From: Microbacterium sp. 1S1
GTDB taxonomy: Bacteria > Actinomycetota > Actinomycetes > Actinomycetales > Microbacteriaceae
NCBI RefSeq assembly: GCF_008271365.1
Contig: NZ_CP043430.1
Location: 806,001-870,000 of the forward strand
Reading direction: 5' to 3'
DNA: 64,000 nucleotides
Part shown: one piece after another, positions 33,958 to 58,535 of the stretch
How positions within the stretch are numbered: the stretch's first letter is position 1
Layout: the number at the start of each line of letters is the position of its first letter
Translations under genes and position numbers: made by a program
The notes under the pieces: model-generated
What the model was told of the DNA's origin: nothing
Database searches by the model: none
Seen by the model: only the letters and a program-made list of their open reading frames with translations

Positions 33958-34095
33958 GGCATCTCTGACTGGGACCTCTTCACTCACAACACTGCGTACG
34001 CGATGGCCTACGCATCCGAAGAGCTGATCGAGCACTGGGCGCGCCACCCGCGGCCGACGTTCGCCGCGTACGAGAGGCAGATGCTCGACTGCTAG
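33958..34095 (+). pseudogene. Short coding remnant at the edge of an accessory island
   Basis: About 45 codons read SDWDLFTHNTAYAMAY followed by ASEELIEHWARHPRPTFAAY and stop at 34095. The composition is protein-like but no start codon or ribosome site is in a sensible place, and the preceding in-frame codons look random. It is probably the 3' end of a gene lost by insertion or deletion next to the Crp gene. Family not recognised. Its stop shares bases with the stop of the convergent gene. Confidence 0.35.
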
Positions 34096-34715
34096 CCCTT
34101 GCCCCGGTTGCTCTGTCGTCTGATCTCTCGGCGGCGCTTGAGCTTCCGATACTTCCAACGCACGAAGTCCCACGGCGGGATATGTCGTCGCAAGTAGTGC
34201 GCTCCAAGGAAGTACCCCGCGCGTTCGTCGCGGTCCACCCGTAGATACTTTCGTTGGTTCGACGGATCGTCGAACTGCCCCTCGACGCGATACCAGAACT
34301 TAATGCGCCGTTTGCGTCCGTCTGGCTCCATCCAGGAGATCCGAATGAAGCGCCACTCGCGGCAATCGCTGACGAGCTGCTGGGTCAGTTCTACCGTGGC
34401 CCCGGGCGCAAGCGGCATAGGGATACTGTCCCCGAGGTGATGGTCGAAGTCGTAGGTTGCCACCAGCGGCGAGGCTGGGCCGCGATTGTATGCGTAGAGA
34501 TGGATCATCGGCCGGTAGTCATCATCGCCACCAAACGCCGACACTGACGTGTTCACGATCGCATCCATGTTGCAGCGCTCTCGGCGTCGGGAGTGCCTGA
34601 TGCTGACGAATGCTGCAAGAGCGGCAGCCGCGGTGAAGACCGCGCTGAGGATGGCAGCCAACGCACCTATCGCCCCACTGTTGGCGTTGAGCCACGCGAT
34701 CACTTCCGAGAGCAT
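34092..34715 (-). CDS. Membrane-anchored protein of unknown function
   Basis: A 207-residue protein with one N-terminal helix (about 14-38: SGAIGALAAILSAVFTAAA) and a basic RHSRRRER stop-transfer, so the bulk probably faces the cytoplasm. The soluble part has aromatic/charged strands (IHLYAYNRGPASPLVATYDF, REWRFIRISWMEPDGRKRRI) and ends in a very basic tail with two R/K clusters. No family is recognised; similar single-helix proteins occur as cargo in phage and integrative-element accessory regions. Base composition is clearly lower in GC than the flanking genes. Confidence 0.65.
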   Translation of the reverse strand: MLSEVIAWLNANSGAIGALAAILSAVFTAAAALAAFVSIRHSRRRERCNMDAIVNTSVSAFGGDDDYRPMIHLYAYNRGPASPLVATYDFDHHLGDSIPMPLAPGATVELTQQLVSDCREWRFIRISWMEPDGRKRRIKFWYRVEGQFDDPSNQRKYLRVDRDERAGYFLGAHYLRRHIPPWDFVRWKYRKLKRRREIRRQSNRGKG

Positions 34716-34896
34716 GCTGTCACTGTAGCGAGGGCGATCGATGAAAGCTGTCGCCCGTCAGTCGCGCGTAATGGCGATCCGGCCGGATTCGATTCCGAGG
34801 GCGAGGCTGCGGTGGTGGACGCTCATGCGGTTCTCGCGGAAGGCTCGCTGATTGGCAATCTTCGACCGGGCGGGGGCGGCGCGGCGCATCGGCTAA

Positions 34897-35034
34897 GACC
34901 TACGAACGATCTATCAATGGGAGCAGCGCGGCGAGTTGCGGTTCGTGCTCGATCGGATCCGCGAGGCCGATCTGCTCGAAGCCGATAAGCGCATGCGCTC
35001 GCGTCGCGGGCGTCCGCGGAAAGTCATCGAGTGA
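34897..35034 (+). pseudogene. Decayed DNA-binding gene remnant
   Basis: The frame ending at 35034 encodes TIYQWEQRGELRFVLDRIRE and then a basic tail RMRSRRGRPRKVIE, which looks like the wing and C-terminus of a small helix-turn-helix (XRE- or MerR-like) protein. It is cut off upstream by an in-frame TAA at 34894 and no start is available. The rest of the 350-bp gap (34716-35065) shows only scattered protein-like fragments in other frames, so I read it as a decayed gene rather than functional intergenic DNA. Confidence 0.4.
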
Positions 35035-35065
35035 TGTCAGCCGGGGTGGCCGATATGGTTACCTC

Positions 35066-35809
35066 GTGCTGCATCGTCGCGTAGAGAGAATCCGCCTTCG
35101 TCGAACATCGACGCCTGACATGGTGCTGCTGCCGTCGCTGGTCACTGATCTTGAAACGCTCTTGGACGTGTTGGATGTCACCGGCAAGCGGTGGCAGGGG
35201 TCGCAGCCGTTCGGCGGCACCAACCTGTTGCCGATCGACTACTCCTTCCAGGTAACAAGCGGGGAGGTGACGCGGGAAGAGCTCTCCGCGTTGAGCGTGC
35301 ACGAGCGCAACTCGCTGAGCGCGTCCGTTCGGGTAGCCGACAGAAGCCTCAACTTGTACTGCCCCGCAGGACACCTGAGCGTCTCACCGGAGAACACGCC
35401 CGACGTTGCGGTAACTGAATCCGAGGCGATTCGCATTCTGTTGCAGGGCAGTGCGTGGCGGCCAACGTGGCATCGGTGGCGTGCCAAGCTCCCGCTGGCA
35501 CCCGCGCTGCTCGTCCTCATCGGTAGTGTCTGGCTGATCGCGAGTTCGTACCTGCCGGCGGCGGCGGTTGTCGCGTTGGTCGGAGGCTGCGCCCTGCTGG
35601 TGGCCTTTGCTGTCCAATGGAGCCGAGAGCTGAGCCGAGCCAGCCGATTCCGCGGAGGTGCAGTCAAATTCCGTGCGCAGTCCCGGCAAGAGTTGTACGC
35701 CTCGAGGGCGGATCGGTGGGCGAACCTCAAAGTTGCCTTGATCACCGCTCCGGTGTCGATCTTGGCGGCTCTCTTCATTGCCTGGGCGACGGGGTTCATC
35801 TCGCCTTGA
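35066..35809 (+). CDS. Three-helix membrane protein of unknown function
   Basis: A 247-residue protein with a 140-residue N-terminal soluble domain and three predicted helices (about 144-160, 163-184 and 223-243). The soluble part has a conserved-looking SLVTDLETLLDVLDVTGKRW and a small STSTP-like basic start. No family is recognised. The GTG start is supported by a -10-like TATGGT ending 6 bp upstream, so the mRNA is probably leaderless. It stands alone inside the accessory island, and its lower GC content and unusual codons set it apart from the flanking core genes. Confidence 0.65.
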   Translation: MLHRRVERIRLRRTSTPDMVLLPSLVTDLETLLDVLDVTGKRWQGSQPFGGTNLLPIDYSFQVTSGEVTREELSALSVHERNSLSASVRVADRSLNLYCPAGHLSVSPENTPDVAVTESEAIRILLQGSAWRPTWHRWRAKLPLAPALLVLIGSVWLIASSYLPAAAVVALVGGCALLVAFAVQWSRELSRASRFRGGAVKFRAQSRQELYASRADRWANLKVALITAPVSILAALFIAWATGFISP

Positions 35810-35853
35810 TGGCTCGACGCTCAAAATGTGTCAAATGTGTCATGGGAATGTGT

Positions 35854-35859
35854 TAGGCT
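35854..35859 (+). promoter_or_regulatory. Candidate -10 element of a short transcript
   Basis: TAGGCT at 35854-35859 with TGTCAA 19 bp upstream makes a plausible promoter about 7 bp before a short region that ends in a clear intrinsic terminator. The rest of the 329-bp gap (35810-36138) holds no convincing gene. Confidence 0.4.
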
Positions 35860-35876
35860 AGCGCAAGCGCGATCAG

Positions 35877-35912
35877 ACTCGGAAGACCTCACGGAGGTTC
35901 CGGGTCTTTTTT
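35877..35912 (+). terminator. Intrinsic terminator with T6, framed by an inverted repeat
   Basis: ACTCGGA (35877-35883) pairs with TCCGGGT (35899-35905), ACCT with AGGT inside, loop CACGG, followed by C and six T. Outside it, GCGCAAG (35861-35867) and CTTGCGC (35913-35919) form a second, larger 7-bp stem. With the promoter just upstream it defines an RNA of about 47 bases, either a small RNA or an attenuator for the phage-like genes downstream. Confidence 0.75.
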
Positions 35913-36138
35913 CTTGCGCTCATGCGGCGGGGCGTTGCCCCCGTCCCGCCGCTCTCATCTCTTCCCCGCCGCAGCTCGCCCTCACTATAGGCGCGCACTG
36001 CATCGGACTGACCGCGAGTACCGCGGCGACCATGAGCACGGACTGCAAGGCAGCGTGCCGGGTGCCGCCCGAAACCGGCGACTCGATCTCGTGACCGACT
36101 GGCGCATGGGCGGCGGGGCAATCGTGAAAGGACGATCC

Positions 36139-36369
36139 ATGTCTCTGAAGGATCAGCTACTCACCGGCCCGACGCCGCGTGAGTACCCCGACAAGGTGCG
36201 CTCGTGGCGCTCCACCCTCGATGACGAAACGCGCGAGGCGTTCGACGCCGCCGTGAACGATCCGCGCTGGTCGGATTCCGCGCTCGCCCGGATGCTCACG
36301 GGTTCCGGGTTCAAGGTGTCCGAGCCGACGATCAAGCGCTACCGCGACAACCAGCGGGTGACGCCTTGA
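36139..36369 (+). CDS. Small phage-like protein, probable helix-turn-helix
   Basis: A 76-residue protein behind GAAAGGAC. Its second half (RWSDSALARMLTGSGFKVSEP then TIKRYRDNQ) has the spacing of a helix-turn-helix whose recognition helix is TIKRYR. Proteins of this kind occur in actinobacteriophages and prophage remnants next to a phosphoesterase gene; that association is from memory and not verified here. Its TGA overlaps the TTG start of the next frame (TTGA). A promoter-terminator unit lies 230 bp upstream. Confidence 0.6.
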   Translation: MSLKDQLLTGPTPREYPDKVRSWRSTLDDETREAFDAAVNDPRWSDSALARMLTGSGFKVSEPTIKRYRDNQRVTP

Positions 36370-36701
36370 CGCTGGCTGAAGACCTCGGCAATCCGCCGGA
36401 GCCGGAGAGCACGCCCACTGAGTCGGCGGATATCCACTACGGTGACGACGGCGCTCCCGATGGTGGCACGTTCGAAGGCATCCGCTCCGACGAGCCGCTG
36501 ACCGACTGGACGCACGTCTTCAAGCAGTTCAAGCTCAACCCCAGCGATTATGACGCGAAGGGCGGTATTCCGCAGCCGCCGCGGCACTCGGCCCCCGCCA
36601 GGACGGGGCACTTCCCCACGAGATCGCAGGGATTCCGGGAACCCGTGCGGCCCCGGTGCGAATCTGCGACCGCGCGCCGGGGCCTCAGTCCTCGCGGGTG
36701 A
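36366..36701 (+). pseudogene. Truncated phage-like gene
   Basis: A TTG-initiated frame of 111 codons. Residues 1 to about 65 look genuine (acidic start, then SDEPLTDWTHVFKQFKLNP), resembling the N-terminus of actinophage phosphoesterase-type proteins. After about 36560 the frame becomes Pro/Arg-rich and random, and it runs into the 3' end of the convergent DHFR-like gene. The catalytic domain expected of the full protein is missing, so the gene was cut at the right border of the accessory island. It is coupled by TTGA to the small gene before it. Confidence 0.5.
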
Positions 36702-46327: not shown

Positions 46328-47776
46328 CTACGCGCGTGCGCGGCGGGGTCGGCGCTCCACCTTTGCGTCCTCGCTCATGTCCTCGAGCTCGCGTCCCTTG
46401 GTCTCCGGCACCTTGAAGAACACGAAGAAGAACGACAGCAGTGCGAAGAAGGCGTAGAAGCCGTACGCGAAGGTGAGTCCGATCTCCGCGAAAGCGGGGA
46501 ACGTCGTGGAGATGAAGAAGTTCGCCACCCACTGCGCGGCGGCCGCGACGGCGAGGGCGCCGGCACGGATGGAGTTCGGGAAGATCTCGCCGAGGAGGAC
46601 CCACACGAGCGGTCCCCAGCTCGCCCCGAAGAACACGACGAAGCCGTTGGCGCAGATGAGCGCCACGGTCGCCCAGGGGTCGGGGAGCGTGGCCGTCCCC
46701 GAGGAGTCGAGGGTGCCGAACGAGAAGGCGAGGGCCATGAGGCCGAGCGTCACCGTCATGCCGACGGAGCCGACGAGCAACATGATCCGGCGGCCCACCC
46801 GGTCGACGAGCAGGATCGCGACGATCGTGACGACGATGTTCGTCACCGACGTGATGACCGAGGTGAGGAGAGCGCTGGACTCGTCGAAGCCCACGGACTG
46901 CCACAGCGTCGTCGAGTAGTAGAAGATCACGTTGATTCCGACGAACTGCTGGAAGACCGACAGCAGGATGCCCACCCACACGATCGGCTTGAGGCCCAGG
47001 CGGCTCCCGCGGAGGTCGCGCAGCGACTCAGAGCGCTCCGTATCGATCGTGCCGGTGATCTCCTTGATCTTGGCTTCGGTGTCGATCGTCCCCGTGACGG
47101 TCTCCAACACCTCTGCGGCGCGTTTCATCTCGCCCTTGCGGACCAGATAGCGCGGAGACTCCGGGAGCCGCAGCGAGACGAGGCCGTAGACGAGCGCCGG
47201 GATCGCCGCGACCATGAACATCCACCGCCAGGCCGTCAGGCCCCAGAGTGGCTGGTCGGCCTCCCCCGCGATACCCGCGAGGAGGGCGTCGGACAGGAGG
47301 GCGGCGAAGATGCCGAGCACGATGGCGAGCTGCTGGAGTGATCCCAGACGGCCACGGATCGCGGCGGGCGAGACCTCCGCGATATAGGCCGGTGCGATGA
47401 CCGAGGCCGCGCCGACGCCGAGGCCGCCGATGACACGCCAGATGATGAGGTCCACGACACTGAAGGCGAGGCCCGAGCCGATCGCGGAGGCGAAGAACAT
47501 GGCCGCAGCGGCCACCATGACCGGGATGCGGCCGAACTTGTTGGACACCGGACCCGCGAACCAGGCGCCCACCGCGCACCCGATGAGTGCGGACGAGACG
47601 GCGAAGCCTTTGAGCCCGGTACCGAGGTCGAAGCCGGAGACGTCTCCTGCCAGCGCGTCGACCGCTCCGTTGATCACCGCGGTGTCGAACCCGAAGAGGA
47701 ATCCGCCCAGAGCCGCCGCGATACTGACGGCGATCACGCGACGCTTGATACTCGCTGGATCAGCTGTTCTGGACAT
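46328..47776 (-). CDS. Sugar porter (MFS), xylose/galactose:H+ symporter type
   Basis: A 482-residue, 12-helix major facilitator of the sugar porter family. Landmarks: GGFLFGFDTAVINGA in helix 1, the loop motif GRIPVMVAAAA with NKFGRIP, PESPRYLVRKG before the central loop, DRVGRRIMLL in the second half, and PETKGRELEDM at the C-terminus. These fit XylE/GalP/IolT relatives, importing a hexose, pentose or inositol with protons. I start at the ATG behind GAGGGGATGTC rather than an upstream TTG. No catabolic genes are adjacent. Confidence 0.88.
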   Translation of the reverse strand: MSRTADPASIKRRVIAVSIAAALGGFLFGFDTAVINGAVDALAGDVSGFDLGTGLKGFAVSSALIGCAVGAWFAGPVSNKFGRIPVMVAAAAMFFASAIGSGLAFSVVDLIIWRVIGGLGVGAASVIAPAYIAEVSPAAIRGRLGSLQQLAIVLGIFAALLSDALLAGIAGEADQPLWGLTAWRWMFMVAAIPALVYGLVSLRLPESPRYLVRKGEMKRAAEVLETVTGTIDTEAKIKEITGTIDTERSESLRDLRGSRLGLKPIVWVGILLSVFQQFVGINVIFYYSTTLWQSVGFDESSALLTSVITSVTNIVVTIVAILLVDRVGRRIMLLVGSVGMTVTLGLMALAFSFGTLDSSGTATLPDPWATVALICANGFVVFFGASWGPLVWVLLGEIFPNSIRAGALAVAAAAQWVANFFISTTFPAFAEIGLTFAYGFYAFFALLSFFFVFFKVPETKGRELEDMSEDAKVERRPRRARA

Positions 47777-47834
47777 GACATCCCCTCGCATCGTCAAGAT
47801 GACGAGTCTATGTCACCCCCGCCTGGCGGCGGCG

Positions 47835-48809
47835 TCACCGCGCGGAGCCGTACCCTTCTTCGCCGAGCTCCTCGAGAATGCGGTTGAGGTCCTGAATGGA
47901 CGCGAAATCAATCGTGACCTGGCCTTTTCGAGCTCCGAGCGAGATACGGACACGAGTGTTGAGCCGGTCGCCGAGCTTTCCGGCCACCTCGTCCAGGTAG
48001 GCCCGGCGGGCGCCAGGGGTCGGCTTCGGCGTCTTCCCCGCGGAGGGCTGCGACTTGGCGGCCTCCTCCGTGGCGCGGACCGAGAGATCTTCGTTCACCA
48101 CCTTGTCCGCCAGCCGCTGCATCGACTCCGGAGAGTCGAGGCTGAGGATCGCACGCGCGTGGCCCGCGGTGAGGACACCCGCGGCCACACGCTGCTGCAC
48201 CGGAACCGGGAGCTTCAGCAGGCGGATGGTGTTGCTGATCTGCGGCCGGGAACGGCCGATGCGCACGGCCAGCTCCTCCTGCGTGATGCCGAAGTCATCC
48301 AGAAGTTGCTGATACGCGGACGCCTCCTCCAAGGGGTTCAGCTCCGAGCGATGGAGGTTCTCCAGCAGCGCATCGCGCAGCAGGTCCTCGTCGGCCGTGT
48401 CACGGACGATCGCGGGGATCGATTCGAGTCCGGCCTCTCGAGCGGCCCTCGTGCGTCGCTCGCCCATGATGAGTTCGTAGTCGCCGTCGCCGTTCTTCCG
48501 CACGACGACGGGCTGCAGCACGCCGAACTCCCGGACGCTGTGCACCAACTCCGCCAGATCCTCTGGGTTGAAGTGCGTCCGGGGCTGACGGGGGTTGGGG
48601 ACGATCGCGTGCGGGTCGACCTGGATCAGCTGGATCCCGGGCACCGCCTCGAGTTCGGCCACCGGGGTCCCCGCGGCCTCGTCCGGTGCCGCATCGGAGG
48701 TCGGCGCGATCTTCGCGCCGGGGAAGAACACATCGACGGGGCGTTCGGTCTGTTCGGCGGTCGGGATGAGGGCTCCGATGCCCCGGCCGAGTCCGGTGCG
48801 CTTCGCCAT
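47835..48809 (-). CDS. parB: Chromosome-partitioning protein ParB
   Basis: A 324-residue ParB CTPase clamp. The N-terminal domain (about 60-155) contains PNPRQPRTHF and the CTP motif GERRTRAA (about 116-123). The central helix-turn-helix (TQEELAVRIGRSRPQISN) binds parS, and the C-terminal region (about 270-324) dimerises. Its start shares bases with the parA stop (TAATG), a classic parAB operon. It should load at the eight parS sites found at 49.7-52.1 kb and spread to build the partition complex, also recruiting SMC. Confidence 0.96.
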   Translation of the reverse strand: MAKRTGLGRGIGALIPTAEQTERPVDVFFPGAKIAPTSDAAPDEAAGTPVAELEAVPGIQLIQVDPHAIVPNPRQPRTHFNPEDLAELVHSVREFGVLQPVVVRKNGDGDYELIMGERRTRAAREAGLESIPAIVRDTADEDLLRDALLENLHRSELNPLEEASAYQQLLDDFGITQEELAVRIGRSRPQISNTIRLLKLPVPVQQRVAAGVLTAGHARAILSLDSPESMQRLADKVVNEDLSVRATEEAAKSQPSAGKTPKPTPGARRAYLDEVAGKLGDRLNTRVRISLGARKGQVTIDFASIQDLNRILEELGEEGYGSAR

Positions 48810-49732
48810 TATTTCTCCTTGCTCTGCGTCTGACGGGACGCGATCTCGACGGCGGCCTCACGGTAGGCGATCGCCCCGGCCGACTGGCCGTCGTAGGCGA
48901 TGACCGTCTGGCCGAAACTGGGGGCTTCCGACACACGGACGGACCGCGGGATCACGGTATCGAGCACTTGTGACGGGAAATGAGAACGCACTTCCTCCGC
49001 CACCTGCTGCGCGAGGCGTGTTCGTCCGTCGAACATGGTCAAGAGGATCGTGGACAGGTGGAGTGCAGGGTTCAGATGCTTCTGGATCATCTGAATGCTC
49101 CCGAGCAGCTGGCTGAGGCCCTCCAGTGCGTAGTACTCGCACTGGATCGGGATGAAGACCTCATTCGCCGCGGTGAAGGCGTTGATCGTCAGAAGCCCGA
49201 GAGACGGCGGGCAGTCGATGATGACGAAATCGACCGGATTCTCCGCAAGGTAATCCTCCAGCGCACGCCGGAGGCGATGTTCGCGGGCCACTTGGGCGAC
49301 GAGTTCGATCTCGGCGCCCGCGAGATGGATGGTGCTCGGTGCGCAGAAGAGGTTCGGGTTCTCCGGGCTCGGCTGGATGATCTCGGCGAGGGGGAATTCG
49401 TCGATGAGAACGTCGTAGACGCTGGGTGTATCCGCGTTGTGCGGAACCCCGAGGGCGGTGGACGCGTTCCCCTGCGGATCCAGGTCGATGACGAGGACCT
49501 TGGCGCCCAGTCCCGCGAGAGCGGAAGCGATGTTCACAGCGCTGGTGGTCTTCCCGACGCCGCCCTTCTGGTTCGACACCGTCAGGATGCGCGTGTCCCC
49601 GCTGAACTCCACGCTCACCTTGTCGAGCGCGCGCCGCCGAACGGAGAGATCCGCGAGTTCTCGCGCGAGGGGGGTATCCATTCCGAACGAATCGTTCGAC
49701 GATGCCTTCTCGGACTGTTTCACGTGAAACAT
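48809..49732 (-). CDS. parA: Chromosome-partitioning ATPase ParA
   Basis: A 307-residue Walker ATPase that moves the ParB-parS complex after replication. The deviant Walker A QKGGVGKTT (signature Lys56 and Lys61), the DLDPQGN switch and FVIIDCPPSLGLL Walker B are all present. The ATG at 49732 overlaps a perfect parS site, so the first residues MFHVK are written by parS itself; an in-frame ATG at residue 18 would avoid this but has no better ribosome site. Binding of ParB there could repress the operon. Confidence 0.95.
   Translation of the reverse strand: MFHVKQSEKASSNDSFGMDTPLARELADLSVRRRALDKVSVEFSGDTRILTVSNQKGGVGKTTSAVNIASALAGLGAKVLVIDLDPQGNASTALGVPHNADTPSVYDVLIDEFPLAEIIQPSPENPNLFCAPSTIHLAGAEIELVAQVAREHRLRRALEDYLAENPVDFVIIDCPPSLGLLTINAFTAANEVFIPIQCEYYALEGLSQLLGSIQMIQKHLNPALHLSTILLTMFDGRTRLAQQVAEEVRSHFPSQVLDTVIPRSVRVSEAPSFGQTVIAYDGQSAGAIAYREAAVEIASRQTQSKEK
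49716..49731. promoter_or_regulatory. parS site 1 (perfect palindrome, overlaps the parA start)
   Basis: TGTTTCACGTGAAACA, the canonical 16-bp parS with both outer bases paired. It covers the parA initiation codon and so could serve both partition and autoregulation. Confidence 0.95.
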
Positions 49733-49880
49733 CCACTCCTTTCGGGGCCGCGTTCCACTCTAATCGCAGGGACCGACCTCGGCTTGCCAGCACCGCGATT
49801 CGCGCAGGATTGGACCCCTCGACATCGCGTACCACGCGTGCCCACGCCGATCGCTGCTGGAGCAGCGACGGCGCGACGAC

Positions 49881-49896
49881 CGTTTCACGTGAAACC
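49881..49896. promoter_or_regulatory. parS site 2
   Basis: CGTTTCACGTGAAACC: intact 14-bp core, outer bases unpaired. It begins a 194-bp unit whose flanks resemble those of site 3. Confidence 0.93.
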
Positions 49897-50074
49897 TGGG
49901 GCTCTGTGACTGCGCTCGACCGGCACGAGATGCCCGCTTTTCTCCACCCCCATCACCACGTCGAGCCGGCGCCGCGCCTACCTCGGCACAGCTCATGCAG
50001 AATCGGCCTCTTGGACCTCGCCCACCAAGCCCCGAACGCCGACCCCTGCGGGAGTGAAAGACGACGCGGCCGGC

Positions 50075-50090
50075 CGTTTCACGTGAAACG
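50075..50090. promoter_or_regulatory. parS site 3
   Basis: CGTTTCACGTGAAACG: intact core with paired outer bases (C/G instead of T/A). Flanks are similar to those of site 2. Confidence 0.93.
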
Positions 50091-51139
50091 TGGACCTCCA
50101 GGACTGCGCCCAGCGAGCACGGTCTGCCCGCTCTTCTCCACCCATTGCGACGTGGGCCGGGCCCGTGCTTTCGCCAAGCTGACAGGTCTCTTCCCTTGCG
50201 ATTCCCCGTCCCTTCGGGAGGGGCTGACCGGCCGGCAGAGGCGACGCTCACGCAAGCCACGTTGGCACCGCTCTCCCCCGTCCGCGGCGGCGCTCCAGGC
50301 CGTGCGCCCGACGGGGGCTCCGCTGCTCCCCGGTCGCCGCCGAGCGAACGGCGCTCCGTCCGGGCCGTCCGTTCTCCGCGCGCTGCATCGCACCCCTCGC
50401 CGCATTCGTCTCCGGTGACCGTCCCCGCACCCGCGCGTGCCGAGGACAATTGTTCCGCGCGTCCTTCCGTGTGACAGAACGGCCGGACACCACCGGGATC
50501 GGATCCCGGAGAGCCGCCAGCTCGACCGCTCATCGAGCCCGGCTCCGAGCGCCTGCCCACCCCGCGAGGAGCGTGAGCGGCGTTGACCTCACGGCTGTCG
50601 CCTCCCCTCCACTCGGAACTGCGTCCAGGGGGCCTCCAGCGCCGGCGATGCTCGGCCCGTCTCACAGGCCTCGGTGGGTGCGCGTCCGCATCCGGAGTCG
50701 AGCGCCCTCAGGTCGATGGCGCGCTCACCCTCCGACCGACTCCTGTCGGGGCGATGCTCGGCGCCTCGACGGCACGCACAGGTCGCCGCGTGTCCGTTCA
50801 CCCCTGCCCCTTCGCATCCTCCGCCGTCTCGTCGAGCGGCGTCGATCTCGGACAGCGATCTCGCCCCCGTCGAATACCACCTCTCGGCCGACCGCGTCGA
50901 TCACAGCAGGGAGGGACGACGGCCAAGCGGTCATTTTCCTGCGGACGCCACTGCTCTCCAGCGGTGCCCTCTCCACCGCACGAGAACGCCCGCAGCGACC
51001 GGGACGGGTGGGCGCAACGGGAAGATCTGGCCCCTCCGTCCGCTACGCCGGACCGGAGCCCGATGCGCAGACCCGCCCTCCCTCGGAGAGGTCTGTGTTC
51101 GTGTCGGAGGCTCGTCCTCGCGTCGAGAGCTGGCTCTGA

Positions 51140-51155
51140 CGTTTCACGTGAAACC
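51140..51155. promoter_or_regulatory. parS site 4
   Basis: CGTTTCACGTGAAACC: intact 14-bp core. It is separated from site 3 by 1,065 bp, the longest gap in the cluster. Confidence 0.93.
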
Positions 51156-51411
51156 ACCGGTCACCAGAGCGGCGGTGCCGGAGAGTGAACGGATCGTAGC
51201 CTTCGTCGCGAGGAGGCGAGCCGTCGTCCTCTTGGTGCCTTCGCGCCGCGTACAGCGTGGTCACCCCCTAGCCGGCCCCGACCCCGTGCCCGCGCGCCCG
51301 CATTCACATCCGGGTCGAGTACGCGGCCGCGCACCCCGGAGCCCTCCTGCTCCCTGACACGCGGTAGGACTGCCTCCGCGACGGTTGACGCCAATCTGGG
51401 GAGAGCGGCAC

Positions 51412-51427
51412 TGTTTCACGTGAAACG
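51412..51427. promoter_or_regulatory. parS site 5
   Basis: TGTTTCACGTGAAACG: intact 14-bp core, outer bases mispaired (T/G). Site 6 begins 95 bp downstream. Confidence 0.93.
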
Positions 51428-51506
51428 GCCACCTTCAGCACCACCGCACGGCGGAACGGACCCAGCCGCCGCTCTGAGCCGGACACCACCGCGCGCGAAG
51501 CGCTCA

Positions 51507-51522
51507 CGTTTCACGTGAAACG
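51507..51522. promoter_or_regulatory. parS site 6
   Basis: CGTTTCACGTGAAACG: intact core with paired outer bases, 95 bp from site 5, the tightest spacing in the cluster. Confidence 0.93.
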
Positions 51523-51741
51523 CTGGTCAAATCGGGACCATGATCGGTTACTTCTTCTGCAGCACCCACCAGCCGAGCACGGTAGTCCCCCTCGTCAACC
51601 GGCCCGTCGACGCCTGCCACAGCATGGATAGTACGGGCACCCGTTCGTTGATGTTCCCCAGGCCATCTCCCCGCAGCGCTGGCCCTATCCGCCCGTTGGA
51701 AACGATGGGCAAAGGTCAGGAGTGGATTCCAGCGTCGGACG

Positions 51742-51762
51742 TCGCATCGCATCGCATCGCAT
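51742..51762. repeat. Pentanucleotide microsatellite (TCGCA)n
   Basis: Just over four tandem copies of TCGCA between parS sites 6 and 7. It is short but unusual in this genome and marks non-coding, slippage-tolerant DNA. Confidence 0.8.
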
Positions 51763-51971
51763 GGGCATCGCCGAGATGCTGCCGCCTCGATCACTGATCC
51801 GATCGGGAACGTCGACGACAACCCCACGACCGATGGACGGCAGGGCCGCGAACTCGTTGGTGGCCGTTGCCGGCTTATCAGCTTCTTGACCTCGCCCACA
51901 GCCCTATGAGGCCGCGTGTGGGTCTTGGGGAGACACAGGTGGCCTACGGTCGAGCGGACCCGAGCTGTCAC

Positions 51972-51987
51972 CGTTTCACGTGAAACA
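51972..51987. promoter_or_regulatory. parS site 7
   Basis: CGTTTCACGTGAAACA: intact 14-bp core, outer bases mispaired (C/A). It is 465 bp from site 6. Confidence 0.93.
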
Positions 51988-52097
51988 CACAAACCAGGCA
52001 GAGGGGCGCCACCCGTACGACCTCGAGCTCGCACCCAAGAACCGGCGCATCGCGGGGATAGGCGCTCATCCTGCGCCCCCGGCGCGCATGAGAGGCA

Positions 52098-52113
52098 TGT
52101 TTCACGTGAAACA
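52098..52113. promoter_or_regulatory. parS site 8 (perfect palindrome)
   Basis: TGTTTCACGTGAAACA, identical to site 1. It lies 17 bp after the end of rsmG, closing the cluster. Confidence 0.95.
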
Positions 52114-52129
52114 CACGTGACGGGCCGGG

Positions 52130-52777
52130 TTAGCGGACGCGTGCCCGGACGACACGCGTCGTCTCGGGGAGGACTCCCTCTCCAAGAATCTCAACCCGCA
52201 CGTCTGAAAGACGGAACTTTGCTATCTGCTTACGCGCCGCCTCGATCTCATTCGCCGCGTTCGCGCCCTTGAGGAGCGTCAGCTCTCCCCCATCCCGGAC
52301 CAGGGGTGCGGTGAGAGGGATCAACGTCCGTAGCGCACTCACGGCGCGCGCCGTCACCACATCGAACGCACCTCGCGCCCGCACATCCTCCGCGCGCGAG
52401 CGGAGGATGGTGACGTTCGAGAGCCTTAGGTCAGCGACCTGCTCCGTCAGCCAGATGATGCGTCGCTCCATCGGCTCGATGAGAGTCCACGACACATCCG
52501 GCCGCGCGATCGCGAGAACCAGGCCAGGGAGTCCGGCACCGGACCCGATGTCCGCCACCGATCCATGGAAGAGCGGTGCGGCGATCGCGCTGTTGAGGAT
52601 ATGACGGGTCCACAGGCGCGGAAGCTCGAGCGGTCCGATCAGGCCCCGCTCCTCCCCCTCTCTCGCGAGGGAATCCGTGAATCGACGAGCGAGGTCGATG
52701 CGCTCCCCGAAAAGCTGGGCGGCGACAGCCGGTTCCTGCTCTACGGCCTTGTCACCCGAATCCATCGTTTGGGACAC
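52130..52777 (-). CDS. rsmG: 16S rRNA (guanine-N7) methyltransferase RsmG
   Basis: A 215-residue SAM-dependent enzyme that methylates G527 (E. coli numbering) of 16S rRNA. The SAM pocket VADIGSGAGLPGLVLAI (about 74-90), TLIEPMERRIIWL and DVVTARAVSALRTLIPL are standard. Loss-of-function in this enzyme gives low-level streptomycin resistance in other bacteria. GTG at 52777 is the longest start; an ATG five codons in is possible. It sits between jag and the parS zone as in most actinobacterial origins. Confidence 0.94.
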   Translation of the reverse strand: MSQTMDSGDKAVEQEPAVAAQLFGERIDLARRFTDSLAREGEERGLIGPLELPRLWTRHILNSAIAAPLFHGSVADIGSGAGLPGLVLAIARPDVSWTLIEPMERRIIWLTEQVADLRLSNVTILRSRAEDVRARGAFDVVTARAVSALRTLIPLTAPLVRDGGELTLLKGANAANEIEAARKQIAKFRLSDVRVEILGEGVLPETTRVVRARVR

Positions 52778-52798
52778 GCGCCGGCACCCGACTGCGGG

Positions 52799-53290
52799 TC
52801 AGTGACGACGCAGAACCGTGTGACGGTCCGCGCCCTCGCCATACGACTCGGAGACCAGGCCACGCTCGGCCGCGATGTCGTGCACCAGCTTGCGCTCGTA
52901 GCTCGACATGGCAGGAAGCGACGCCTGCGACGACCCCTCATCGAGCTTGGCGGCCGCGGCTTCGACGAGCGTCTCGAGCTGCCGACGACGCGCGTCACGG
53001 GAGCCGCCGATATCGAGGATCAGGCGCGAGAACGAGCCGGTCTTGTTCTGGACGGCAAGACGGGTGAGCTCCTGCAGTGCCTGCACGGTGTCGGGCGCCG
53101 ACAGGAGCGCGAGGCCGTCTCCCTCGGCCTCCACCGAGACGTATGCCCTCCCCTGACGGACGTCGAGGTTCAGGTCGCCATCGATGTCGGCGATGTCGAG
53201 CAGCTCTTCGAGGTAGTCGGCGGCCACGTCACCCTCGTGCTCGAGATCCGCCACGGTCGGCTCGGTGTTTCCGGTCACGACCTCGCTCAT
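52799..53290 (-). CDS. jag: RNA-binding protein Jag/KhpB (R3H domain)
   Basis: A 163-residue KH-R3H protein. The KH-like part covers about 25-95 (AADYLEELLDIADIDGDLNL) and the R3H motif is SYERKLVHDIAAERGL with HTVLRR at the end. The N-terminal Jag-N domain of Firmicutes is absent, which is normal for Actinobacteria. It binds RNA and affects cell division and envelope in other species. ATG overlaps the yidC stop by 4 bp. Confidence 0.92.
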   Translation of the reverse strand: MSEVVTGNTEPTVADLEHEGDVAADYLEELLDIADIDGDLNLDVRQGRAYVSVEAEGDGLALLSAPDTVQALQELTRLAVQNKTGSFSRLILDIGGSRDARRRQLETLVEAAAAKLDEGSSQASLPAMSSYERKLVHDIAAERGLVSESYGEGADRHTVLRRH

Positions 53291-54357
53291 GACGCGTTCC
53301 CCTTCTTCTTCGCGCGCTTCTTGCCGACCGGCTGCTGCCGCTTCGGCGCTTCGGCCTTGGCCTTCTCGGCCTGCTCCAGCAGACGCTGCTGCTCGGCCTC
53401 GTACACGGAGATCGGGACGACCTTGCCGGAGGAGTCGATCGCCTTGCCCTTGCGCGCCAGGCGCTCCTCACGGGCCTTGGCCGCCTCGGAGCCCGGCGTC
53501 GGCATCTCGCGGATGACGAGGAACTGCTGCCCCATGGTCCAGAGGTTCGAGATGAACCAGTAGACGACCACGCCGAGCGGGAAGAAGATGCCCGAGAAGA
53601 TGAAGCCCAGCGGCAGCACGTAGAGCATGATCTTCTGCATCTGGTACGCCTGACCGGTCTTGGCTTCCGGCGACAGGTTCTTCGAGATGATCTGCAGCTG
53701 CGTGATGAACTGCGACGCGATCATGAGCACGACGAGAGTGATCAGGATGATGATCGCCGTGACGTTCTGCGCGTCGATGGCGTTGCCGAGCGTCTCGTGC
53801 AGGGACGCCACTCCGAAGAGCTTCGCGTCGTAGAACTCCTTCGTGAGCTCCGGGCTCAACAGTCCGACGCCACCCACGTTGTCCCGGGCGTGCTTGCTGA
53901 CGTCGCTCAGCACGCTGTAGAGGGAGAAGAAGATCGGCATCTGCACGAGCAGCGGCAGACAGCTCGACATCGGCGTGGTGCCGTGCTTCTTGTACAGCGC
54001 CATCGTCTCGCGGCTCATCGCCTCACGAGAGAGCTGGTCCTTCTTGCCGCGGTACTTCTCCTGAACTTTTCGCAGTTCAGGCGCGATTTCCATCATCTTT
54101 CGCTGGCTCTTGATCTGCTTCACGAACAGCGGGATGAGCGCCGCGCGAACCACGATGACCAGACCCACGATCGAGAGGACCCAGGTGATGCCGGAGGCCG
54201 CGGGAAGCCCCACGGCGGTGAGCAGCCAGTGCCAGGCGACGAGGATGAGCTCGACGACCCACTTCAGCGGCCAGAGGATCGTGCCGAGCAGGTCGAATCC
54301 GCCGGATGCCGGTTCCGGGCTGGGGGTGGCACTGGCGAACAGAAGGTCAAGACCCAC
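53287..54357 (-). CDS. yidC: Membrane protein insertase YidC
   Basis: A 356-residue insertase with the five-helix 60KD_IMP core: WVVELILVAWHWLLTAVG, then VRAALIPLFVKQIKSQRKM with the coiled-coil hairpin, MSSCLPLLVQMPIFFSLYSVL, IILITLVVLMIASQFITQL and MLYVLPLGFIFSGIFFPLGV. The C-terminal tail is strongly basic (KRQQPVGKKRAKKK), which helps ribosome contact. GTG start; yidD ends 3 bp upstream and jag overlaps downstream, the conserved origin-proximal operon. Confidence 0.95.
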   Translation of the reverse strand: MGLDLLFASATPSPEPASGGFDLLGTILWPLKWVVELILVAWHWLLTAVGLPAASGITWVLSIVGLVIVVRAALIPLFVKQIKSQRKMMEIAPELRKVQEKYRGKKDQLSREAMSRETMALYKKHGTTPMSSCLPLLVQMPIFFSLYSVLSDVSKHARDNVGGVGLLSPELTKEFYDAKLFGVASLHETLGNAIDAQNVTAIIILITLVVLMIASQFITQLQIISKNLSPEAKTGQAYQMQKIMLYVLPLGFIFSGIFFPLGVVVYWFISNLWTMGQQFLVIREMPTPGSEAAKAREERLARKGKAIDSSGKVVPISVYEAEQQRLLEQAEKAKAEAPKRQQPVGKKRAKKKGNAS

Positions 54358-54360
54358 CGA

Positions 54361-54711
54361 TCAGTCCTTTCGGGAGGGGACGACGAAACCGTGTGCGGTC
54401 AGGTCGTAGCGGAAGTGTCGATGCGGTGTGACGTCGTCGACGCCTCCGCGAGACCAGGGATTGCAGCGGAGGATGCGCCAGGCGGAGAGCAGAGTCCCCC
54501 GCACGGCGCCGTGCTGCTGCACCGCACCTACAGCGTAGGCGGAACAAGAGGGGTAGTACGCGCACACGTCTCCGTACATCGGAGAGATGACCTTGCGGTA
54601 TCCCGCCAGAAACGCGAGGACGGCATTGCGCGGGAGGAGCGGGATGCTCCGGAGCGCATCGCGGCCGTGCCACGACCCCGTACCCACCGACGAAGCCGGC
54701 AACGCGGTCAT
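54361..54711 (-). CDS. yidD: Membrane protein insertion efficiency factor YidD
   Basis: A 116-residue YidD protein. LAFLAGYRKVISPMYGDVCAYYPSCSAYAVGAVQQHGAV is the family core (in pieces RKVISPMYG, CAYYPSCSAYA), with the conserved cysteines, then GVDDVTPH at the end. It aids insertion by YidC. The start at 54711 overlaps the rnpA stop (ATGA); an N-terminal extension upstream in frame belongs to rnpA sequence. Confidence 0.92.
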   Translation of the reverse strand: MTALPASSVGTGSWHGRDALRSIPLLPRNAVLAFLAGYRKVISPMYGDVCAYYPSCSAYAVGAVQQHGAVRGTLLSAWRILRCNPWSRGGVDDVTPHRHFRYDLTAHGFVVPSRKD

Positions 54712-55058
54712 GATGCGGCCTCGACCGGCGTGAGCCGTCCCAGGCAACGGTGCACGTCATTGCGGAGTTCCGCATACGACGCTGCCGCGGACGCAGGAAG
54801 GGCACGGATGACGACATCCGTGCCCTGTGGAACACCGGGAAGCGCCTCCGCACAGACGGCCTTGAGTCGCCGACGCACGGTGTTGCGCACCACAGCGGTA
54901 CCCACCTGCTTGCTGATGATGAAACCGAACCTCGCGGCCCTGCTCTCGCCCGTCGACAGCATCGAGGTGACGACGCGCGCCCCGCCACAACGCGATCCGC
55001 GTCGAACGACCAGTCGGTAGTCGCTCCCGCGGGTCAGACGGAACGGGCGGGCGAGCAC
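54708..55058 (-). CDS. rnpA: Ribonuclease P protein component
   Basis: A 116-residue basic protein that helps the RNase P RNA cut tRNA 5' leaders. RLTRGSDYRLVVRRG at the start, RFGFIISKQVGTAVVRNTVRRRLKAV (the RNR motif, quoted partly as VVRNTVRRRLK) and the C-terminal helix are standard. GTG start 6 bp after the rpmH stop. It overlaps yidD. Confidence 0.94.
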   Translation of the reverse strand: MLARPFRLTRGSDYRLVVRRGSRCGGARVVTSMLSTGESRAARFGFIISKQVGTAVVRNTVRRRLKAVCAEALPGVPQGTDVVIRALPASAAASYAELRNDVHRCLGRLTPVEAAS

Positions 55059-55064
55059 AGCTAC

Positions 55065-55202
55065 TTACGCGGAGAGCTCGGTACGGCCCTTCGCGCGGCG
55101 TGCCGAGAGGATGGCACGGCCGGCGCGGGTGCGCATGCGGGCACGGAAACCGTGCTTCTTGGCGCGACGACGGTTGTTGGGCTGGAAGGTGCGCTTGCTC
55201 AT
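55065..55202 (-). CDS. rpmH: 50S ribosomal protein L34
   Basis: A 45-residue, very basic ribosomal protein starting [20 protein letters not shown] and ending GRTELSA, an exact fit to bacterial L34. ATG at 55202 follows GGAGTGATCTC. It is the first gene of the rpmH-rnpA-yidD-yidC-jag-rsmG operon reading away from dnaA. Confidence 0.97.
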
Positions 55203-55480
55203 GAGATCACTCCGGGAATGCTGCCACCGGATTCACTTCGACCGGAGACATGGGGAACTGCCATACAGGCATAAGTCAACCGACTAAGGGTACGTCCTGG
55301 CGGCGCACAGGGCAAATCTGCCACCTGTAGCGCTGCTCATCCCTCGCGTACCGCACAGCCATTATCCACAACCGGGAAGAGCCCGACAGTTTCGACACGC
55401 GCGCGTGTTTCCAAGGGCAGGTTGCCGTTCGGACGGCGTGTGACTACCGTGGCATCCGAAGTTATCCACAGGGGATCAGC
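55203..55480. promoter_or_regulatory. Divergent rpmH-dnaA promoter region with DnaA boxes
   Basis: The 278-bp gap contains the consensus DnaA box TTATCCACA at 55362-55370 and again at 55462-55470, the second only 10 bp before the dnaA start codon. These positions allow DnaA to repress its own gene. No small gene is evident. Confidence 0.75.
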
Positions 55481-56908
55481 ATGTCGACCCCGACCCGATC
55501 CGTCGTCCGGAGCACCATGTCCTCACCTGCCCAGCCCGACGTCCCCATCTGGACCACGGTGCAGGAGCTGCTGGAAGCCGACGACCGGGTCACTCCGCAG
55601 CTCCAGGGCTTCCTGAGCCTCGCAGTGCCGGCGGGCGTGATGTCGGCGACCCTCTACCTCGAGGTGCCCAATGACCTCACCGCGGCGCAGATCAACAAGC
55701 GCCTCCGCCTGCCCATCATGGAGGCCCTGGCCCACGTCGGGGAAGAGGTCACCTCGTACCGTGTGGTCGTGAACCACGAGCTGGCCGAACAGCCCACCGC
55801 ACCGATCGCCGTCGCGGACTTCGGTCGGCAGGAGCCGGTCCGCGCCGAATCGCCGATGGAGCAGCCGACCCCGCTGCGGCACGAATCGCGTCTCAACCCC
55901 AAATACACCTTCGACAACTTCGTCATCGGTCAGTCCAACCGGTTCGCCCATGCGGCGGCGGTGGCCGTGGCCGAAGCGCCGGCGAAGGCCTACAACCCGC
56001 TCTTCATCTACGGCGACTCCGGACTGGGCAAGACCCACCTCCTCCACGCCATCGGCGACTATGCCCAGTCGCTCTACGCCGGGGTGAAGGTGCGTTACGT
56101 GTCGAGTGAGGAGTTCACGAACGACTTCATCAACTCGATCGCCAACAACCGGGGTGCCGCCTTCCAGGCCCGGTACCGCGACGTGGACATCCTCCTCATC
56201 GACGACATCCAGTTCCTGCAAGGACGCGCGGAGACGCAGGAGGCGTTCTTCCACACGTTCAACACTCTGCACGACCACAACAAGCAGGTCGTCATCACCA
56301 GTGATGTCGCGCCGAAGCACCTGACCGGCTTCGAAGACCGTATGCGCAGCCGGTTCGAGTGGGGCCTCATCACCGACGTGCAGGCACCCGACCTCGAGAC
56401 CCGGATCGCGATCCTCCGCAAGAAGGCGCAGAGCGAAGCGCTCCACATCCCCGACGAGGTGCTCGAGTACATCGCCACCGTCGTGTCCTCGAACATCCGC
56501 GAGCTGGAGGGGGCGCTCATCCGCGTCTCGGCGTTCGCGAGCCTGAACCGGTCGGCCCTCGACATCTCTCTCGCGCAGACCGTGCTGCGGGACATCATCG
56601 ACACGGCCGAGGACAACATCATCTCGCCGACCGACATCATCACGGCGACCGCGCAGTACTTCAAACTCACCGTCGACGATCTCTACGGCTCGAGCCGTTC
56701 GCAGCAGATCGCGACCGCTCGCCAGATCGCCATGTATCTCTGCCGCGAGCGGACGAGTCTCTCCCTGCCCAAGATCGGGCAGCTCTTCGGCAACCGCGAC
56801 CACACCACGGTGATGTACGCCTACAAGAAGATCAGCGAGCTCATGAAGGAGCGGCGCTCGATCTACAACCAGGTGACCGAGATCACCACTCAGCTCGGCC
56901 GTCGCTGA
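55481..56908 (+). CDS. dnaA: Chromosomal replication initiator DnaA
   Basis: A 475-residue AAA+ initiator. Domain I spans about 15-90, a short linker follows, and the ATPase starts near 137. Walker A is GDSGLGKTH (about 177), Walker B LLIDDIQFLQG (about 238), and the C-terminal DNA-binding domain ends with the DnaA signature GNRDHTTVMYAYKKI. ATG 55481 follows CAGGGGATCAGC; a second in-frame ATG lies 36 bases later. It binds the boxes on both sides of the gene and opens the origin. Confidence 0.97.
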   Translation: MSTPTRSVVRSTMSSPAQPDVPIWTTVQELLEADDRVTPQLQGFLSLAVPAGVMSATLYLEVPNDLTAAQINKRLRLPIMEALAHVGEEVTSYRVVVNHELAEQPTAPIAVADFGRQEPVRAESPMEQPTPLRHESRLNPKYTFDNFVIGQSNRFAHAAAVAVAEAPAKAYNPLFIYGDSGLGKTHLLHAIGDYAQSLYAGVKVRYVSSEEFTNDFINSIANNRGAAFQARYRDVDILLIDDIQFLQGRAETQEAFFHTFNTLHDHNKQVVITSDVAPKHLTGFEDRMRSRFEWGLITDVQAPDLETRIAILRKKAQSEALHIPDEVLEYIATVVSSNIRELEGALIRVSAFASLNRSALDISLAQTVLRDIIDTAEDNIISPTDIITATAQYFKLTVDDLYGSSRSQQIATARQIAMYLCRERTSLSLPKIGQLFGNRDHTTVMYAYKKISELMKERRSIYNQVTEITTQLGRR

Positions 56909-56924
56909 CCGCCACGACGCCCGG

Positions 56925-56958
56925 AGGGACGCCGCATCCGACACCGGACGGCGTCCCT
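56925..56958 (+). terminator. Terminator of dnaA
   Basis: AGGGACGCCG (56925-56934) and CGGCGTCCCT (56949-56958) pair perfectly with a 14-base loop, followed by TCTGGGTTT, 17 bp after the dnaA stop. It isolates dnaA from the origin and dnaN. Confidence 0.8.
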
Positions 56959-56979
56959 TCTGGGTTTGACAGGCGCATG

Positions 56980-57392
56980 ACGCGTCCGATAGATGCGTCT
57001 ATGCACATGTGGATAACTTGTGGATGACCGTGGAACTCGCCGTCGCGGATGTGTGCCAATCGGGGAAACCTGTGGATAACCCGGGGAGGGCGAAACGGTG
57101 GGCGACCCTCGTCCACCCGCGGATTCCTCAGGGTCTCCACAAGTGACAAGTGTGTAGTTCCCTACTCACGCTTGCTTTCCACCGACTTATCCACAGTATC
57201 CACAGGTGTTAACACCGTTAAGGAGTTAAGTCATTCAAGGTGCGATCCGATCACCAGACGGTGGGGAGAGCCGGCCGGAGCACGACACCTCCTCCGGCGT
57301 AGGGAACCGCAGGACTGTGGGGCTAGCATGGGAAGCCCTGCAGTGGCAGGACCCGACGACGACCCGTCATGTTCGACGACAAGGGAGCACCC
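56980..57392. other. oriC: Replication origin oriC (dnaA-dnaN region)
   Basis: DnaA boxes cluster here: TGTGGATAA at 57008-57016 and 57071-57079, TTATCCACA at 57187-57195, and one-mismatch copies at 57019-57027 (TGTGGATGA) and 57196-57204 (GTATCCACA). The boxes point in both directions. An AT-richer stretch with GTTAACACCGTTAAGGAG at about 57208-57235 is the best candidate for the unwinding element. The 484-bp gap has no gene. Confidence 0.85.
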
Positions 57393-58535
57393 GTGAGGTT
57401 TCAGGTCAACCGCGATGTCTTCAGCGAGGCTGTGTCCTTCGTCGTCAAGCTCCTCCCCCAGCGCAATCCTCAGCCGATCCTCGCGGGCGTCCTGATCGAA
57501 GCCGACGGTGCCGGGCTCACGCTCTCCGCGTTCGACTACGAGGCGTCCGCACGCACGACGATCGAGGCGACCGTCGAGACACCCGGCACGATCCTCGTCC
57601 ACGGTCGTCTGCTGTCCGACATCGCGAGCCGTCTTCCCAACGCGCCGATCGAGATCGCCGTCGAGGATGACGGCGGCATCGCCGTGACCTGCGGCTCGGC
57701 CCGCTTCACGCTCGCGGCCATGCCGGTCGAGGAATACCCGTCGATCCCCGAGGTGTCCGGGTCTTCAGGCGTCGTCCCGGCCGACGAATTCGGCACCGCG
57801 ATCGCACAGGTCGGATTCGCGGCGTCCCGCGACGACGTCACCCCCGTGCTCACCGGCGTTCAGCTCGAGGTCACGGGCCAGACCCTCAGCCTCGTGGCGA
57901 CCGACCGGTACCGCGTGTCCCTCCGTGACGTGCCGTGGGACGGCGAGGCCGTCGAGGCCACCGCCCTGGTCCCGGCGCGCACGCTCGTCGAGGTCGGCAA
58001 GACGTTCGGTCACGCCGGCACGATCCAGATCGCGTTCTCCGGCGCGGGAGACCGAGAGATCATCGCCTTCACGGCGGGCAACAAGACCGTGACGTCGCTG
58101 CTCATCAAGGGCAACTTCCCGCCGGTCCGCCGCCTGTTCCCGGAGCAGACCGACCACTACGCGGTCGTCAACACGGCCGACCTCATCGAGGCCGTCCGGC
58201 GTGTGTCCCTCGTCCTGGACCGCGCGGCGCCGCTGCGCTTCACGTTCTCGACCGACAGCGTCACCATGGACGCGTCCGGCAGCGAGCACGCCCGCGCCTC
58301 CGAGTCGGTCGACGCGATCCTCTCCGGTGGCGACGACGTCACGCTGGGCCTCAACCCGCAGTACCTGATCGAAGCCCTCGGCGCCGTGAAGAGCGAGTTC
58401 GTGCGGGTCACCTTCACATCCAGCGACAACGCCAACAAGCTGAGCCCGGTCCTCATCACGAGCCAGACCTCGGTCGACCAGGCCGGCCTGGACTCGTTCA
58501 AGTACCTCCTCCAGCCCAACCTCCTCCTGCGCTGA
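57393..58535 (+). CDS. dnaN: DNA polymerase III beta subunit (sliding clamp)
   Basis: A 380-residue clamp of three similar domains that encircles DNA and tethers the polymerase. VRFQVNRDVFSEAV at the start, RNPQPILAGVLIEA, LVATDRYRVSLRD and the C-terminal FKYLLQPNLLLR are standard. I use GTG 57393, six bases after AAGGGAG, which gives the usual length; an ATG 24 bases earlier lacks a site. It is the first gene after oriC. Confidence 0.97.
   Translation: MRFQVNRDVFSEAVSFVVKLLPQRNPQPILAGVLIEADGAGLTLSAFDYEASARTTIEATVETPGTILVHGRLLSDIASRLPNAPIEIAVEDDGGIAVTCGSARFTLAAMPVEEYPSIPEVSGSSGVVPADEFGTAIAQVGFAASRDDVTPVLTGVQLEVTGQTLSLVATDRYRVSLRDVPWDGEAVEATALVPARTLVEVGKTFGHAGTIQIAFSGAGDREIIAFTAGNKTVTSLLIKGNFPPVRRLFPEQTDHYAVVNTADLIEAVRRVSLVLDRAAPLRFTFSTDSVTMDASGSEHARASESVDAILSGGDDVTLGLNPQYLIEALGAVKSEFVRVTFTSSDNANKLSPVLITSQTSVDQAGLDSFKYLLQPNLLLR

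What the first reader, a model, noticed from the sequence alone, without database searches (positions are those of the whole stretch)
49716..52113. Eight parS sites packed into a 2.4-kb gene-free zone
All eight sites keep the identical 14-bp core GTTTCACGTGAAAC, while the outer base pair varies (T/A twice, C/G twice, C/C twice, T/G and C/A once each). Seven lie in DNA with no convincing gene between parA and rsmG. parS sites are more often scattered in or near genes; here they form a discrete, centromere-like array about 5-8 kb from oriC. The graded outer bases could tune ParB affinity.
Basis: partly seen in the sequence, partly recalled or inferred. Interest (0 to 1): 0.8.

Follow-up and report, generated by a model that had tools for sequence, protein, structure and literature searches.

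The report
Gene-free, duplication-grown bacterial centromere array
All eight perfect copies of this bacterium's centromere word lie in one 2.4-kb stretch without recognisable genes, and in related species such stretches appear to grow by tandem duplication while the centromere words are kept.

Summary
Eight perfect GTTTCACGTGAAAC cores lie at 49717-52112, and the 3.40-Mb genome has no other perfect core; the next best has 2 mismatches. The 2,397 bp between rsmG and parA show no coding-like ORF, no Rfam match, and no Pfam match for six ORFs submitted.

Relatives extend it. In 89 Microbacterium loci (window included) the rsmG-parA gap has median 2,047 bp (37-11,388) and holds 516 of the 584 parS seen. 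In 60 loci from 60 other genera of the family the median is 106 bp. The window's gap aligns to relatives only over 35-80 bp before parA.

New here: duplications occur in 35 of 78 genus gaps against 0 of 74 genic controls. In two long arrays ~290-bp units keep the parS core (91-93% identity) while flanks drift to ~70%. The window failed that blastn test, but a finer test finds one old ~194-bp duplication around sites 49882 and 50076 (0 of 400 resamplings).

Best reading: an ordinary ParABS centromere by mechanism, of an unusual kind: dedicated, gene-free, expanded by tandem duplication. Function is inferred; nothing was assayed.

The parts
49733..52129 (.). rsmG-parA gap, 2,397 bp, the gene-free zone
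   Evidence: No coding-like ORF, no Pfam match for six ORFs, no Rfam match
49717..49730 (.). parS core, outer bases T/A, overlaps the parA start codon
49882..49895 (.). parS core, outer bases C/C
50076..50089 (.). parS core, outer bases C/G
51141..51154 (.). parS core, outer bases C/C
51413..51426 (.). parS core, outer bases T/G
51508..51521 (.). parS core, outer bases C/G
51973..51986 (.). parS core, outer bases C/A
52099..52112 (.). parS core, outer bases T/A, 18 bp from the rsmG stop
49804..49977 (+). copy 1 of an old ~194-bp tandem duplication carrying parS 49882
   Evidence: Flank alignment scores 45 and 32; 0 of 400 resampled gaps reach 45 in any pair; 73-nt core of it at 78%
49997..50168 (+). 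copy 2 of that duplication carrying parS 50076
49733..49792 (-). parA leader, the only gap DNA besides parS that aligns to relatives (35-60 bp with 17 of 88 genus loci; 51-80 bp with 6 of 6 nearest). Start of conservation varies
48809..49732 (-). parA (307 aa)
   Evidence: Pfam AAA_31 4.6e-59
47835..48809 (-). parB (324 aa)
   Evidence: Pfam HTH_ParB 1.1e-35, ParB_N 6.7e-34, ParB_C 2.1e-07
52130..52777 (-). rsmG (gidB), far border of the gap
   Evidence: Pfam GidB 1.2e-45

Best explanation
This is the chromosome's centromere: a ParABS parS array in a dedicated gene-free gap between rsmG and parA. Each parS loads ParB. By analogy with studied ParB proteins, ParB-CTP clamps then slide into flanking DNA, here DNA without genes and so probably with few bound proteins in the way; the dense complex is what ParA moves and where SMC is loaded. 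The parS over the parA start probably lets ParB damp parAB. Over evolution the gap lengthens by tandem duplication of stretches that often carry a parS; afterwards the DNA drifts except for parS (core plus a T or C outer base) and the parA leader. Shown here: the sites, their uniqueness, the lack of recognisable genes, the duplications in relatives and one in the window, the retention of cores. Inferred: ParB binding and sliding, repression of parAB, selection for emptiness.
For: 8 perfect sites, none elsewhere in the genome; intact ParA and ParB by Pfam; a 1,191-aa SMC-like frame in the genome; gap without coding-like ORF; 516 of 584 cores of 89 genus loci in this gap; direct duplications in 35 of 78 genus gaps, 0 of 74 genic controls; 15 of 29 tandem-type genus gaps carry 2 or more parS; core kept in L139 and L176 satellites, 0.91 and 0.93 against 0.70 and 0.71; 5 of 7 sites kept perfectly in the alignable pair L246/L247 at 74% background identity; window duplication, 0 of 400; outer-base bias.
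Against: Nothing was assayed. The window itself is not among the loci with duplications by blastn, has one detectable duplication among 8 sites, and is not evenly spaced. 14 of 29 tandem-type genus gaps have fewer than two parS in the repeated span, and L146 and the other-genus L222 have satellites without any, so duplication is not aimed at parS. Of nine arrays tested, five show core retention only weakly, i.e. 10-49% of flank windows are as well kept. Genus members with gaps of 85-116 bp and 3-4 sites exist, so a long array is not needed. The genic control is a weak one, since coding DNA resists duplication.
Confidence: 0.8

Rival explanations
1. The array is an ordinary origin-proximal parS cluster; the empty DNA between sites is neutral filler that deletes slowly, and nothing selects for emptiness, length or spacing.
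For: Gap length varies 37-11,388 bp and flips between long and short at least 21 times on the tree; 12 of 15 pairs compared align over under 11% of the gap, while their 4-fold sites are 47-71% identical, so no constraint beyond neutral is needed; satellites without parS exist; single genes sit in some relatives' gaps.
Against: Genus-wide concentration of parS in this gap; even spacing in 49 of 65 loci, though regular duplication could produce that and strong thinning leaves 9 of 14.
Confidence: 0.4
2. The gap grows mainly through REP-like palindromes and other selfish repeats, and parS units are copied along as passengers.
For: 17 of 89 genus gaps have the palindrome words, 15 of them with a GIY-YIG gene or remnant; in G069 all 8 genome copies of one palindrome lie in the gap; TRF unit of L119 contains palindrome and parS together.
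Against: The window has none of these words in the gap and none of the long palindrome in the genome; L139 and L176 satellites belong to loci without these words; even spacing persists in 40 of 51 loci without them.
Confidence: 0.15
3. An unrecognised small gene or RNA lies in the gap and the parS sites are incidental.
For: The gap is long, and the codon score misses atypical genes (small GIY-YIG genes of relatives).
Against: No Rfam match, no Pfam match for six ORFs, and nothing but the parA leader aligns to six relatives whose parA-parB DNA is 86-87% identical.
Confidence: 0.04

Closest known systems
parS cluster of Corynebacterium glutamicum (PMC7083940, passages)
   Same: Actinobacterial ParABS; ten sites near oriC, nine of them intergenic; ParB and SMC recruited there
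   Different: Ten sites over 35 kb at 73 kb from oriC, among genes; here eight in 2.4 kb of one gap beside parA
parS cluster of Caulobacter crescentus (PMC5815017, passages)
   Same: Tight cluster about 8 kb from the origin; five strongest sites within 5 kb; sites of different strength
   Different: Those sites lie in essential or costly genes; here seven of eight lie in gene-free DNA
parS of plasmid F, sopC (PMC6238139, passage)
   Same: Tandem repeats each bearing a ParB site
   Different: Twelve 43-bp repeats on a plasmid; here long, diverged units (about 88-480 bp in relatives) on chromosomes
Satellite DNA of eukaryotic regional centromeres (recalled, no call)
   Same: Tandem arrays that change while a short protein-binding word is kept
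   Different: No homology; sequence-specific ParB loading, kilobases not megabases. An analogy, not membership

Membership tests
Chromosomal ParABS centromere | parA and parB adjacent, with ParB_N, HTH_ParB and AAA_31 domains | tested here: met
Chromosomal ParABS centromere | parS core near the origin and not all over the chromosome | tested here: met
   8 sites 3-8 kb from dnaA-dnaN, none perfect elsewhere
Chromosomal ParABS centromere | 16-bp consensus with outer T/A (consensus recalled) | tested here: inconclusive
   Core 8 of 8; outer T/A only 2 of 8; genus allows T or C
Chromosomal ParABS centromere | ParB binds and spreads there | not testable with these tools
   needs ChIP-seq
Satellite-like (tandem-unit) centromere | head-to-tail units each with a binding site | tested here: inconclusive
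   Met in relatives such as L139, L176, L119, L134; in the window only one decayed pair of units and TRF finds no long-period array
Satellite-like (tandem-unit) centromere | binding word kept while the unit diverges | tested here: inconclusive
   Clear in L139 and L176, also L107 (0.5% of flank windows equal the core) and L123, whose core value of 1.0 is too high since one of its five copies has a mismatch; weak in L119, L134, L143, L161, L169
Plasmid F sopC type | 43-bp tandem repeats on a plasmid replicon | tested here: not met
   One 3.4-Mb contig with rsmG, dnaA, dnaN nearby; no such repeat in the window gap

The most novel reading that the evidence does not exclude
Microbacterium carries a bacterial regional centromere: a selected, gene-free domain of up to about 11 kb next to parAB whose DNA turns over satellite-like by tandem duplication, in which only the parS word, its T/C outer base and a roughly even spacing are maintained, much as in eukaryotic centromeres.
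Probability: 0.4. Interest if true: 0.78.

Novelty: new variant of a known kind. Interest (0 to 1): 0.57.

Why it matters
[quoted passage not shown] This genus offers a natural series of 37-11,388-bp gaps with 0-13 gap sites in which growth by duplication, decay and retention of the core can be read directly, and in which the effect of bare DNA on ParB spreading could be tested. If emptiness and spacing prove to be selected, bacteria have evolved a dedicated centromeric domain and not just scattered binding sites.

Tried and rejected
Coding gene in the gap: rejected for the window, but true of some relatives. RNA family: none. Helical phasing of sites: no signal at 10.4, 10.5, 10.6 or 21 bp. 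Fixed spacing between species: not found. parS number against genome size: weak (Spearman 0.24, p 0.02) over 90 genomes; for this I dropped 9 of 99 (eight under 90% complete, and G041, 96% complete with 0 sites and no rsmG match). GIY-YIG remnant in the window: I suspected one by eye near 51540; tblastn gave no window match at E up to 10. Faster-than-neutral change of the gap: not claimed, because 4-fold sites are only 47-78% identical in the 15 pairs compared; in 3 of the 15 (L117/L128, L121/L123, L174/L149) 51-98% of the gap still aligns. Footprinting by pairs: of six pairs only L246/L247 is well aligned; in the other five most sites fall in unreliable alignment. Promoter and terminator scan: 0 and 1 sites, not above shuffles. 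One search had a strand-coordinate error in my script; one search replaces it. My note says 22 loci with homologous parS in their duplications; one search lists 17 (of 42 with self-hits).

Loci left out: of 94 genus loci fetched, 6 lacked parA on the contig, leaving 88 plus the window; 4 of the 99 genus genomes had no rsmG match. For other genera I fetched 60, one per genus, of the 117 family matches outside the genus.

Full report
The observation. The outer bases are as listed. The genome, one contig of 3,400,248 bp, has no other perfect core. The genus is Microbacterium: among named contigs the nearest ParA, 90% identical, is from Microbacterium sp. MYb54.

Surroundings. The gap is bordered by rsmG and parA, both on the minus strand, with parB beyond parA. 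The site at 49717 overlaps the parA start. No gap ORF looks coding, six that I submitted match no Pfam family, and no Rfam family matches 47000-57500. GC of the gap is 68.7%, of the window 68.9%. By the codon score one stretch of the window, 33897-36684, is a longer non-coding-like one, but it contains open frames of 207 and 247 aa, so this is probably a limit of the score. An SMC-like frame of 1,191 aa is in the genome.

Relatives. Of 99 genomes of the genus, 96 have the perfect core; over the 90 kept the count is 3-14, median 6, and 29 of 90 have eight or more. rsmG was found in 95 of 99. In 89 loci with rsmG and parA together (window included) the gap is 37-11,388 bp, median 2,047, and holds 516 of the 584 cores in the stretches fetched; 56 lie at the rsmG start and 12 elsewhere. 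In 60 loci of 60 other genera of the family the median is 106 bp, with 89, 35 and 82 cores in the same classes, and 13 of the 60 exceed 1 kb. On a FastTree tree of RsmG, ParA and ParB the 89 form one side of a branch, and long against short gaps (cut at 600 bp) need at least 21 changes over 149 rows, so length changes often.

The gap DNA. With parS masked, the window's gap aligns to 17 of the 88 other genus gaps, in each only over 35-60 bp before parA. Six closer relatives (parA-parB DNA 86-87% identical) share only 51-80 bp before parA with it. Some other species pairs share more: in 3 of 15 pairs compared 51-98% of the gap aligns, in 12 under 11%. Across genus gaps 4,653 of 222,757 bp look coding. 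Different species carry different single genes there (by eye an acetyltransferase, a methyltransferase, a TetR-like protein and others, not searched), and 15 of 89 a small GIY-YIG gene or remnant that the codon score mostly misses. So 'gene-free' holds for the window and most relatives, not for all.

How it grows. With parS masked, direct duplications of 60 bp or more occur in 35 of 78 genus gaps of at least 400 bp and 3 of 23 in other genera, and in 0 of 74 and 0 of 23 genic stretches of equal length; inverted ones in 15 and 3 against 1 and 0. The window is one of the 78 and not among the 35 with hits. Twenty-nine genus gaps have tandem-type repeats; 15 of these hold two or more parS, and in several the parS spacing matches the period (L093, L107, L119, L126, L133, L134, L139), while in L117, L118 and L121 it does not. 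TRF confirms 293 bp x 5.5 in L139 and 155 bp x 5.3 in L119. In L139 about 8 copies have 8 core-like words (0-3 mismatches); L176 has 10 (0-4 mismatches; the 9 best were aligned). Core identity there is 0.91 and 0.93 against 0.70 and 0.71 in flanks, and no 14-column flank window equals the core. Of nine arrays tested, L107 is nearly as clear, L123 looks so but its core value is inflated by the alignment, and L119, L134, L143, L161 and L169 are weak. L146 and L222 have satellites without parS.

In the window both sides of sites 49882 and 50076 align (49804-49977 with 49997-50168; scores 45 and 32); 0 of 400 resampled gaps reach 45 in any pair, the highest being 37. So sites 2 and 3 are an old tandem copy of each other. 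No other pair in the window exceeds the highest null score.

Selection on sites. Perfect, one-, two- and three-mismatch words number 516, 79, 19 and 12 in genus gaps; a Markov null gives 0, 0.05, 0.65 and 6.3. Of the 79, 36 have C at core position 4 or G at position 11, recalled as the free position of the B. subtilis consensus. In 426 gap sites away from the ends the outer base is T 58.5% and C 34.0%, the next A 46%, the next G 47%, so the favoured word is longer than 14 bp. In the pair L246/L247 five of seven sites each are kept perfectly in DNA of 74% identity (one of the five is the parA-start site in a well-kept leader; 120 of 2,146 other 14-mers, 5.6%, are also kept); of the remaining two in each genome, one is paired with a one-mismatch word and one with no such word. 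I read this as sites being gained and lost.

Spacing. Over 65 genus loci with 5 or more sites the coefficient of variation is 0.52 against 0.72 expected, 49 below the null median; without palindrome-bearing loci 40 of 51; thinned to distant relatives 20 of 27, and more strictly 9 of 14. With a 100-bp exclusion zone 34 of 51 remain (p 0.02). The window is not even (80th percentile). Six loci of other genera (4 or more sites) show no effect, 3 of 6. Regular duplication alone could give this.

Mechanism. CTP-dependent ParB spreading (abstracts in the listing) and SMC loading at parS (passages) are established in other species. [quoted passage not shown] From this I infer that DNA without promoters helps a dense ParB complex; I did not show that the gap lacks promoters (one search found none, with 0.5 expected). 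Repression beside intergenic parS is reported for Pseudomonas aeruginosa in a review (PMC7022226, passage); that the parA-start site here damps parAB is inference. A single parS can suffice in C. glutamicum (PMC7083940, passage), so a long array is more likely a matter of robustness than of need.

Known or new. Clusters of parS near oriC are known and tandem ParB sites are known in plasmid F. In the listings I saw no title on parS arrays of Microbacterium or on satellite-like growth of chromosomal parS arrays; I looked into four of those papers by passages only. The library lacks most subscription papers, and the 2007 survey of parS sites was not read. I rate it a new variant of a known kind.

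Noticed in passing
L118 gap and 16 other genus gaps; G069, G071, G078, G081 genome-wide: REP-like palindromes (two word types) with a ~100-aa GIY-YIG nuclease gene or remnant: 15 of 89 genus gaps have both, 2 have palindromes alone. Of 8 genomes searched the longer palindrome has 74 copies in G081, 55 in G078, 23 in G071, 8 in G069 (all 8 in the parS gap), 0 in the window's genome; in G081 a GIY-YIG gene elsewhere is also flanked by palindromes. It resembles a REP/RAYT pair with GIY-YIG as partner; the searches listed no paper on that.
   Followed up: partly
L210 (another genus): A 6,786-bp gap with 2 perfect cores and 12 words of one or two mismatches, ten of them the single C4 or G11 form and one the double form: an array built mainly of a variant word.
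   Followed up: no
L222 (another genus): A satellite of 187-bp period over about 1.5 kb of the rsmG-parA gap that contains no core-like word.
   Followed up: no
L187, L196, L198, L211, L220 (other genera): The parS zone sits elsewhere: beyond parB in the first four, upstream of rsmG in L220 (11 sites in one 4.5-kb non-coding-like stretch), as if the zone could move around parAB.
   Followed up: partly
G112, G187, G122, G126, G193, G127: Six of 120 family genomes have no perfect core; in the fetched L214 (G126) a one-mismatch word lies in the gap, in L239 (G112) none.
   Followed up: no
window 51742-51771: Short tandem repeat TCGCA, 5.8 copies, inside the gap.
   Followed up: no
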